The notes under the pieces were generated by a model that saw only the letters and a list, made by a program, of their open reading frames with translations, had not been told where the DNA came from and did no database searches. This document shows, piece after piece, positions 52,123 through 54,420 of a DNA stretch of 54,420 nucleotides. Every line of letters starts with the position of its first letter. Positions within the stretch are counted from its first letter, which is position 1. The translations under genes and the position numbers were made by a program. Origin of the DNA: Nitrospirota bacterium (lineage in GTDB: Bacteria; Nitrospirota; Nitrospiria; SBBL01; JAADHI01); assembly GCA_029261155.1 (NCBI GenBank), contig JAJDBW010000038.1, positions 71,706-126,125 on the forward strand. The letters run 5' to 3'.

Positions 52123-53952
52123 ATGCAAGTTAAACCCTTTGATATGAGTGCGATTTTATCCACCCTGCCCAAAGGCCCCGGCGTCTATTTAATGAAAGGA
52201 TCCCGGGGCAAAATCCTCTATGTCGGTAAAGCCAAGGTGCTGGCGAACCGGGTGCGGAGCTACTTTCAATCGGGCGGCGAGGCCACGCCAAAAATTCAAT
52301 CACTGGTCTCCCAGATTACGGCCATCGAAACCATGGTCACTGCGTCGGAACTGGAGGCCCTCATCCTCGAAAACAACCTGATTAAACGGCATCGCCCGAA
52401 ATACAATGTTATTTTGCGCGACGATAAGAATTATCCTCTCCTACGTCTGGCAGTTAAAGACGATTTTCCAAGGCTGGAAATCGTCCGGCGCATCAAGAAA
52501 GACGGGGCGCTGTATTTCGGTCCTTATGTCTCGGCCGGGGGGCTCCGTTCGGTGGTTCGGCTCTTGAGAAAGATTTTCCCCATTCCCAATTGTACAATTC
52601 TCATCGACGGAAAGGCCGATCGGCACTGCATCGAATTCGAAATCAAGCGCTGCCTTGCCCCTTGCACGGGCAACCAATCCAAGGCGGATTATCACAAAAT
52701 GATCGCCCAAGTCCGGATGTTTTTGGAGGGCAAGGATCGTGCGCTCGTTAAAACCCTGAAAAAAACGATGGCCGCCCGGGCCGATGCCCTCGATTTCGAA
52801 TCGGCGGCCCGCCTGCGAGATCAGGTCAAAAGGGTCGAACGCGCCATGGAGCAGCAACGCGTTACTTCATCGAAAATGGAGGATCAAGACGTCATTGCCC
52901 TGGCTCGCAAGGGCACAGCGGCCGACGTCCAAATTCTGTTTATCCGGGGCGGAATGGTCATTGGGCGCAAGGACTTTTTTCTGGAGGACGTGGCCGAGAC
53001 CCCCGACGCCGAATTATGCACCGCTTTTCTCCAACGCTTTTATCATAAGGAAGGCATCATTCCCAAAACGATTATGATTCCGCTTGCCGTTCCAGACCGT
53101 TCGGTGTTGGAAGCCTGGCTTTCCGAGCGCCGGGGCGCCGCAGTTCATCTTCGCACCCCTTCGCGCGGGAAGGGCCTGGGGCTCATCCGTTTGGCAGAAG
53201 AGAATGCCGAGAGCGGCTTGGACGGCCACCTCAAAATCCGAGAGGGCGGCGAAGCGCAGCTGGCCGCGCTTCAAGAGCTGCTGGGGCTTAAACGCCTGCC
53301 TCGGCGGATCGAGGGCTACGATATCTCGAATATCATGGGCACAAGCGCCGTTGGCTCGATGGTGGTCTTCGAAAATGGAAAAGCCAAAAAGGCGAACTAC
53401 CGACATTTTCGTATTAAGACGATCGAAGGGTCCGACGATTTTGCGATGATGGCGGAGGTGATGACCCGCCGCATTGAGGCTTTGAAAAAAGGGGGGGAAG
53501 ATCAAGGGCCGGACTTGATTTTGATTGATGGCGGCAAGGGCCAGCTCTCATCCGTTTGCACCGTCCTCGAAAAGTTTGGCCAGCCTCCGATGGACGTCAT
53601 CGGCCTCGCAAAGGAACGGGACGACCGCGGCGAGCGGGTTTTTCTCCCCGGCGCCTCCGAAGCGATAGACCTGCCCCTTGGCGCGCCCGCGACTCACCTC
53701 CTCATGCAAGTCCGCGACGAGGCCCACCGCTTCGCCGTTTCGTATCACCGGAAGGTTCGGAGCAAAGCAATGATGGCCACGCCCCTGCAAGAAATCGAAG
53801 GCATTGGCCCAGTGCGCCGAAAAGCCCTGCTCAAGCATTTTGGCAGCCTCACCAAAATTCGGGCGGCCACAGTGGAGGATTTAGCGAGCGCGCCTTCGAT
53901 GAATCAAAGCTTGGCTCAGCGGATTTTTGATGCCTTGCAGGAAAATGGCTAG
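52123..53952 (+). CDS. uvrC: Excinuclease ABC subunit C
   Basis: 609 residues. GIY-YIG nuclease (GPGVYLMKG...ILYVGKAKVLANRVRSYF), cysteine patch (HCIEFEIKRCLAPCTG), UVR motif (ALDFESAARLRDQV), RNase H-like nuclease (IEGYDISNIMGTSAVGSMVVFENG, LILIDGGKGQLSS, HRFAVSYHR) and two C-terminal HhH motifs. Makes both incisions in nucleotide excision repair. ATG at 52123 with GAGG upstream is preferred over TTG at 52111. Confidence 0.96.
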   Translation: MQVKPFDMSAILSTLPKGPGVYLMKGSRGKILYVGKAKVLANRVRSYFQSGGEATPKIQSLVSQITAIETMVTASELEALILENNLIKRHRPKYNVILRDDKNYPLLRLAVKDDFPRLEIVRRIKKDGALYFGPYVSAGGLRSVVRLLRKIFPIPNCTILIDGKADRHCIEFEIKRCLAPCTGNQSKADYHKMIAQVRMFLEGKDRALVKTLKKTMAARADALDFESAARLRDQVKRVERAMEQQRVTSSKMEDQDVIALARKGTAADVQILFIRGGMVIGRKDFFLEDVAETPDAELCTAFLQRFYHKEGIIPKTIMIPLAVPDRSVLEAWLSERRGAAVHLRTPSRGKGLGLIRLAEENAESGLDGHLKIREGGEAQLAALQELLGLKRLPRRIEGYDISNIMGTSAVGSMVVFENGKAKKANYRHFRIKTIEGSDDFAMMAEVMTRRIEALKKGGEDQGPDLILIDGGKGQLSSVCTVLEKFGQPPMDVIGLAKERDDRGERVFLPGASEAIDLPLGAPATHLLMQVRDEAHRFAVSYHRKVRSKAMMATPLQEIEGIGPVRRKALLKHFGSLTKIRAATVEDLASAPSMNQSLAQRIFDALQENG

Positions 53953-54103
53953 CCCGAGCCTGGCGACCATTTTTTATTGCGGTTTGATTGGATGAATCAC
54001 GTCAAATGAAAGCGCTTGATGCATATTGGATGCTAATAGCAATAATTGAAACTTGTATCTCCTACTATCAATTCATGTTATTAAAGGTGTGGAATTGAAA
54101 TTT

Positions 54104-54251
54104 GAAAGGCAGGGAAACTTAAGTTTCATCTGGGTCTGTGAATCCTTATTTAAGTGTGTTTCCTGTCTCCCCTAACCCTAGTAAGTTGATTGGGTCATAA
54201 GAACCCTTGTAATAATGGAGATTGGGTTGGGAGACAGCGCCTGCCTCTTTC
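54104..54251 (+). ncRNA. Putative IS110 bridge RNA
   Basis: Strongly structured non-coding stretch just upstream of the transposase. Outer stem AGGCAG (54107-54112) / CTGCCT (54241-54246). Arm 1: GGAAAC (54113-54118) / GTTTCC (54158-54163) around a large loop. Arm 2: CTGTCTCCC (54163-54171) / GGGAGACAG (54229-54237), continued by AACCC (54174-54178) / GGGTT (54224-54228), an internal loop with strands 54179-54191 and 54207-54223, and an apical stem GGGT/ACCC. Two arms with large loops fit the target- and donor-binding loops of known bridge RNAs. Size and place also fit. Confidence 0.65.
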
Positions 54252-54273
54252 AGATATATATGGAGGTGGAACA

Positions 54274-54420
54274 ATGCAAAAACTTTATGTAGGGATTGAT
54301 GTCTCAAAAAACAGCTCTTCTGCGCAAGGCATAGACTCCCAGGGAGAGAAGCGCTTCTATCTCAGCTTTAAGATGGATGCCAAAGGGTTCTCCGATCTGA
54401 TTAGATCAATCCGATCCCAC
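54274..54420 (+). CDS. IS110-family transposase (N-terminal fragment, runs off the window)
   Basis: ATG at 54274 with ribosome site GGAGGTGG. The first 49 residues start MQKLYVGIDVSKNSSSAQG and contain the GIDVSK motif whose Asp is the first acidic residue of the DEDD catalytic set, diagnostic of IS110 transposases (bridge-RNA-guided recombinases). Confidence 0.9.
   Translation, partial: MQKLYVGIDVSKNSSSAQGIDSQGEKRFYLSFKMDAKGFSDLIRSIRSH

What the first reader, a model, noticed from the sequence alone, without database searches (positions are those of the whole stretch)
54104..54251. Bridge RNA candidate with two loop-bearing arms in an IS110 element
The leader between uvrC and the IS110 transposase folds into an outer stem and two arms. 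The second arm has a 14-bp stem with a 2-nt bulge, an internal loop with two single strands (54179-54191 and 54207-54223) and a small apical hairpin. This is the layout of programmable bridge RNAs, whose loop strands pair with target and donor DNA. A segment 54207-54221 resembles 54037-54051 near the presumed left end (11 of 15), which may or may not reflect donor pairing; its orientation does not fit the simple model.
Basis: partly seen in the sequence, partly recalled or inferred. Interest (0 to 1): 0.75.

Follow-up and report, generated by a model that had tools for sequence, protein, structure and literature searches.

The report
Bridge RNA of an IS110 element
The stretch encodes a small guide RNA (a 'bridge RNA') of a jumping gene of the IS110 family: one loop recognises the DNA site to insert into and the other the element's own ends; the mechanism is known, but this branch is uncatalogued and some of its relatives aim at the translation start signals of genes.

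Summary
The RNA spans 54103-54252, between the element's left end (core CT, 54059-54060) and a 394-aa IS110 transposase that starts at 54274 and runs off the contig. Seventeen homologous leaders give a consensus of an outer stem plus two looped arms; 16 of 32 pairs show compensatory changes (0 of 500 shuffles reach this). Other copies in the same genome fix both ends: element 1424 bp, RE ...TAGTTGA, LE CTCCTAC..., core CT.

Arm 1 is the target-binding loop. Its two strands pair with the flanks by the published LTG/RTG rule. Across relatives each guide fits its own flank better than others' (own vs cross 4.64 vs 3.02 left and 4.38 vs 2.24 right, of 7; p about 1e-5). A held-out set of 21 left flanks repeats this (4.71 vs 3.00, p 5e-6); slid registers drop to 1.5-2.0. 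Arm 2 pairs with the RE/LE ends; changes in the ends are matched in the RNA. RE and LE together form a TTGACT-N17-TTATTA junction promoter.

So it is a genuine IS110-type bridge RNA: a new member of a known kind, with an unusually long IS1111-like inverted repeat. One related clade targets Shine-Dalgarno/start-codon sites.

The parts
54059..54060 (+). Core dinucleotide CT at the left end of the element
   Evidence: Left flanks of C32, C44, C45 diverge upstream of (C)TCCTACTATC; RE copies end TTGA|CT; LTG, RTG, LDG and RDG all meet at this dinucleotide.
54062..54074 (+). Left subterminal inverted repeat CTACTATCAATTC; partner in RE (CTACTATCGATTC on the reverse strand), 12 of 13
54078..54083 (+). 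-10 box TTATTA of the promoter predicted to form in the circle (RE TTGACT, 17-nt spacer)
   Evidence: junction sequence; consensus match, inferred
54103..54252 (+). Bridge RNA, structured part
   Evidence: covariance model R1, 143 bits; covariation
54107..54113 (+). Outer stem, 5' side (pairs with 54240-54246)
   Evidence: helix 1: 4 of 7 pairs with double changes
54115..54118 (+). Arm 1 (target loop) stem, 5' side (pairs with 54158-54161)
   Evidence: helix 2
54123..54131 (+). Left target guide GUUUCAUCU, ending in the core
   Evidence: rule from PMC11208160; pairs with left flanks of empty repeats (5-7 of 7 with wobbles) and of occupied sites (3-5 of 7)
54132..54145 (+). Apical hairpin of arm 1 (54132-54135 with 54142-54145)
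   Evidence: helix 3
54146..54154 (+). Right target guide UUAUUUAAG, ending in the core complement AG
   Evidence: reverse complement CTTAAATAA; right flanks CTTATAT (C1), CTTAAGT (C60), CTTAAAT (empty C8, C55, C70)
54164..54170 (+). Arm 2 (donor loop) lower stem, 5' side (pairs with 54230-54236)
   Evidence: helix 4
54175..54178 (+). Arm 2 upper stem, 5' side (pairs with 54224-54227)
   Evidence: helix 5
54185..54191 (+). [quoted passage not shown]
   Evidence: co-changes to GAUGAUU / GATGACT in L027, L109, L117
54192..54206 (+). Apical hairpin of arm 2 (54192-54195 with 54203-54206)
   Evidence: helix 7
54214..54220 (+). Right donor guide, GGAG at 54217-54220 pairs with LE CTCC
   Evidence: co-changes to GGUG / CACC in the CA-core members L063, L066, L113
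54274..54420 (+). IS110 transposase (recombinase) gene, 394 aa, cut by the contig end; rest on contig C1
   Evidence: PF01548 131 bits, PF02371 94 bits, NF033542 226 bits; 141-bp identical overlap with C1

Best explanation
The 54103-54252 RNA is the bridge RNA of an intact-looking IS110-type insertion sequence. Excision makes a circle in which RE and LE join over the core CT and form a promoter (TTGACT-N17-TTATTA) that transcribes the leader (inferred). The transposase binds the RNA (inferred). Arm 1 holds the target: LTG GUUUCAUCU pairs with the bottom strand left of the cut and RTG UUAUUUAAG with the top strand right of it, so the element inserts at sites like TTCAT-CT-TAAAT, found at the edge of a dispersed hairpin repeat of this genome. 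Arm 2 holds the donor: LDG GUUGAUU pairs with RE GTTGACT and RDG GGAG with LE CTCC. Shown by sequence: the ends, the core, conserved and covarying structure, and guide-flank and guide-end correspondence. Inferred: transcription, RNP formation, strand exchange.
For: Structure covaries. Guides track their own flanks in 14 left and 13 right junctions and in 21 held-out left junctions, only in the exact register. In genome G262, 15 right flanks match one RTG at 14-15 of 15 sites for the first six positions. Donor guides co-change with the ends. Transposase is IS110, related to solved IS621/ISCro4, with the D, E, DD and S positions present. Guide orientation and core overlap are as published in PMC11208160.
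Against: No expression or activity data. The window copy itself is cut at a contig end; the right end comes from other contigs (C1, C60), so which left and right ends belong together is unknown. The three occupied left flanks of this genome fit the LTG only moderately (3-4 of 7 Watson-Crick; C45 worst). No clean empty site for the uvrC copy was found in relatives.
Confidence: 0.96

Rival explanations
1. The leader is only a structured 5' UTR that regulates transposase translation; the loops do not guide anything.
For: It lies directly upstream of the transposase and could also act on its mRNA; the outer stem closes 27 nt before the start codon.
Against: A cis-regulator would not need loop strands that track the flanking DNA of each insertion or element ends.
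Confidence: 0.02
2. The guide-flank match reflects shared ancestry of elements and insertion sites, not RNA guidance.
For: Related elements share guides and targets, so the permutation treats non-independent items.
Against: Flanks are host DNA of unrelated loci; 13 left and 15 right flanks of one element in G262 are different loci that share only the guide-matching bases; the fit vanishes when slid by 1 nt; distinct guides such as L122, L121, L110 match their flanks at 8-9 of 9 non-core positions.
Confidence: 0.02
3. It is an IS1111-group element with an atypical arrangement, because it has a long subterminal inverted repeat; the RNA would still be a guide RNA (seekRNA).
For: 12 of 13 bp subterminal repeat, in the IS1111 range of 7-17 bp; a few IS1111 members have an upstream NCR (PMC11187229).
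Against: RNA in LE, 24-nt RE non-coding part, bottom-strand guide first, NF033542 IS110 match; the repeat is only 4-5 bp in most homologues (ATAGT/ACTA).
Confidence: 0.1

Closest known systems
IS621 / ISCro4 bridge RNA and recombinase (IS110 group; PMC11208160, PDB 8wt6, 9t56)
   Same: LE-encoded RNA with a target loop then a donor loop, LTG/RTG/LDG/RDG overlapping a CT core, junction promoter, DEDD-plus-serine recombinase, insertion at dispersed hairpin repeats
   Different: Transposase 394 aa instead of about 330 and sequence similarity low; 13-bp subterminal repeat instead of 2-3 bp; LDG meets the core through a U-G wobble; the RNA is matched by no Rfam 15 family
IS1111-group seekRNA elements (ISEc11, ISKpn4, ISPst6, ISPa11; PMC11187229)
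   Same: Long subterminal inverted repeats; RNA guides to repeats such as REP or attC
   Different: There the RNA is downstream of the gene and the strand order is reversed; here it is upstream and in IS110 order
ISEc21 (IS110 type, PMC11187229)
   Same: Upstream NCR giving a guide RNA; IS110 strand order
   Different: Different target and RNA sequence

Membership tests
IS110 family transposase | DEDD RuvC-like domain plus Transposase_20 domain, curated IS110 match | tested here: met
   PF01548 131 vs cutoff 29, PF02371 93.7 vs 21.3, NF033542 226 vs 140
IS110 family transposase | Catalytic D, E, D, D and serine | tested here: met
   GIDVSK, MESTG, KTDKKDA, QSG aligned to IS621/ISCro4; activity not tested
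IS110 bridge RNA | Two looped arms, conserved by covariation | tested here: met
IS110 bridge RNA | First loop pairs with target, 5' strand with bottom left and 3' strand with top right, including the core | tested here: met
IS110 bridge RNA | Second loop pairs with donor ends, including the core | tested here: met
   Conserved complementarity with two co-changes; no permutation test because the ends vary little
IS110 bridge RNA | Promoter formed across the RE-LE junction | tested here: met
   TTGACT-N17-TTATTA in the joined sequence; by consensus only
IS110 bridge RNA | RNA expressed and bound by the recombinase | not testable with these tools
   needs RNA-seq and a binding assay
IS110 group (versus IS1111) | RNA in LE, short RE | tested here: met
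   215 nt LE non-coding, 24 nt RE non-coding
IS110 group (versus IS1111) | Very short subterminal repeat (2-3 bp) | tested here: not met
   12 of 13 bp; 4-5 bp in most homologues
IS1111 group | RNA in RE, downstream of the gene | tested here: not met
IS1111 group | Subterminal inverted repeat of 7-17 bp | tested here: met
   12 of 13 bp

The most novel reading that the evidence does not exclude
This LE-RNA branch of IS110, widespread in the window's phylum, includes a clade whose bridge RNA is programmed to the consensus translation-initiation site (TTAAAGGAGGTGAAATGG on the gene strand). It inserts within the Shine-Dalgarno sequence while its own left end (CTCCTAC, reverse GTAGGAG) rebuilds AGGAGG, so it can land before many genes without silencing them.
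Probability: 0.65. Interest if true: 0.65.

Novelty: new member of a known kind. Interest (0 to 1): 0.42.

Why it matters
It shows that a bridge RNA can be recognised from raw sequence and validated in silico down to the guide bases, in a divergent branch of IS110 with longer inverted repeats than the type elements and no Rfam model. A different, larger recombinase with natural guide sets (CT and CA cores, different targets) adds material for programmable recombination, and the relatives that aim at ribosome-binding sites suggest a low-damage insertion strategy that is directly testable.

Tried and rejected
Rfam search of the region and of three relatives: no family. First idea that LTG is complementary to the top strand (the C45 flank fits well with wobbles): dropped because the published strand rule fits many loci and this one does not generalise. 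Empty uvrC site in relatives: intergenic DNA too diverged. Searching the class of G262 duplicated the class of G087. attC-like nature of the target repeat: looked for by eye in the site alignment, no convincing attC boxes.

Full report
What was checked. The window is the end of contig C32 of a 90-contig genome. The finding lies between uvrC (stop at 53952) and a transposase start at 54274. Three more pieces of the same element were found at contig ends: left ends on C44 and C45, a right end on C1, and a second right end on C60. Comparing left ends, identity starts at (C)TCCTACTATC, window 54059. Right ends are ...GAATCGATAGTAGTTGA followed by CTTATAT (C1) or CTTAAGT (C60). C32 and C1 share a 141-bp identical overlap; joined, the element is 1424 bp with an intact 394-aa ORF, 215 nt before it and 24 nt after it. 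The joining is an inference: the copies cannot be paired from this assembly.

The protein. It matches DEDD_Tnp_IS110, Transposase_20 and the NCBI model for IS110 RNA-guided transposase well above cut-offs, and among solved structures only IS621 and ISCro4. The motifs carrying D, E, D, D and S are present.

The RNA. On its own the fold is not remarkable (z -1.8). Homologous transposases were collected from the phylum and public genomes. Seventeen leaders align over 159 columns. Counting on that structure: 95.4% of cells paired, 16 of 32 pairs with double changes, covariation score 0.321 against 0.205 in shuffles, and 51-56% paired when slid by one column. A model built from it finds one place in the window, three in the genome and RNAs in 33 of 230 genomes of another class.

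Target guides. Under the published rule (LTG with the bottom strand left, RTG with the top strand right, core in both; PMC11208160), LTG ends just before the arm 1 hairpin and RTG ends at the conserved AG. For 14 elements with a left flank and 13 with a right flank, mean Watson-Crick fit over 7 non-core positions is 4.64 and 4.38 for own flanks against 3.02 and 2.24 for other elements' flanks; no permutation of 100,000 reached the observed sum. I then took 21 elements not used to build the alignment: 4.71 against 3.00, p 5e-6, and 1.5-2.0 when slid by 1-3 nt. Individual cases are striking: L122 matches 9 of 9; L094, L101, L110, L118 and L121 match 8 of 9. Flanks were read by eye from printed sequence, with the register set by the LE and RE motifs. 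The permutations treat related elements as independent, so the p values are optimistic; the register control and the multicopy element in G262 do not have that weakness.

Target of the window element. Its guides predict TTTCAT-CT-TAAATAA. A search with the C1 right end also hit C63 and C8 outside the element. These and C55, C70 and C35 are unoccupied copies of a dispersed repeat of about 60 bp with an internal inverted repeat, whose left edge reads CATCTTA. The right half was used to find them, so it is not independent; the left half (TTCAT or close to it) was a real prediction and is met. The two known right flanks of the element (C1, C60) are members of the same repeat. The three known left flanks end in TATCT, CATCT and AAACT, a moderate fit. 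This resembles IS621, which inserts in REP elements.

Donor guides. RE GTTGACT and LE CTCC are matched by GUUGAUU (54185-54191) and GGAG (54217-54220). Two co-changes support this: L027, L109 and L117 have RE GATGACT with GAUGAUU; L063, L066 and L113 have LE CACC with RDG GGUG, and L063 and L066 also show the right-flank core CA with an RTG ending UG. Joined RE-LE gives TTGACT-17-TTATTA, a sigma-70-like junction promoter, as reported for IS110 circles.

Classification. Guide order, leader position and short RE are IS110-type. The subterminal repeat of 12 of 13 bp is in the IS1111 range, but most homologues have only 4-5 bp, so I read it as an IS110-type element with an extended repeat. No tree against curated IS110 and IS1111 references was built.

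A related clade. In G262 one element has 13 left and 15 right ends. All right flanks begin CTCC and most CTCCTTT; all left flanks end CCT, and 9 of 13 have CAT within 16 nt before it. On the other strand this is AGGAGG-spacer-ATG. About ten of the 13 open a reading frame from that start (the script misplaced the left end in L132-L134, L068, L075, L103 and L141, so those rows should be ignored or read by eye). The guide strings CCAUUUCACCU and UUAAAGGAG together spell the reverse complement of TTAAAGGAGGTGAAATGG. I found no mention of ribosome or start codon in the bridge RNA paper and no relevant paper joining IS110 with Shine-Dalgarno targeting (one hit judged by its title and abstract only); the library is partial. 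That insertion spares the gene is inference.

Verdict. A real, well-supported bridge RNA; known mechanism; new member. Interest 0.42, mostly for the quality of the natural test and for the relatives.

Noticed in passing
L057, L127-L138, L147-L162 (genome G262); also L139, L140, L058, L064, L101, L118: A multicopy related IS110 whose guides spell the consensus Shine-Dalgarno plus start codon; insertions sit at AGGAGG upstream of genes, and the element's left end restores AGGAGG.
   Followed up: partly
G000 C8:29063, C55:48476, C63:5743, C70:98, C35:8478 (L012, L015, L018, L020, L019); occupied C1, C60: Dispersed repeat of about 60 bp with an internal inverted repeat and left edge CATCTTA; serves as the insertion target; its nature is unknown.
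   Followed up: partly
L063, L066, L113: Members with a CA core instead of CT, with matching changes in RDG and RTG, while LTG keeps CU.
   Followed up: partly
L092, L094 (genomes G139, G396): The same RNA occurs in one same-genus and one same-family genome, but only 4 of 270 genomes of the class carry it, against 33 of 230 in another class of the phylum: patchy, perhaps horizontally spread.
   Followed up: no
L104/L137 (G262 C27): A copy with changes in the target loop (GAACGCCATTTCACCTTGG), possibly decaying or being reprogrammed.
   Followed up: no
L057 (G262 C63): A copy whose leader is truncated inside arm 2 and fused to the transposase reading frame: an internal deletion that removes the donor loop and the start of the gene.
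   Followed up: no
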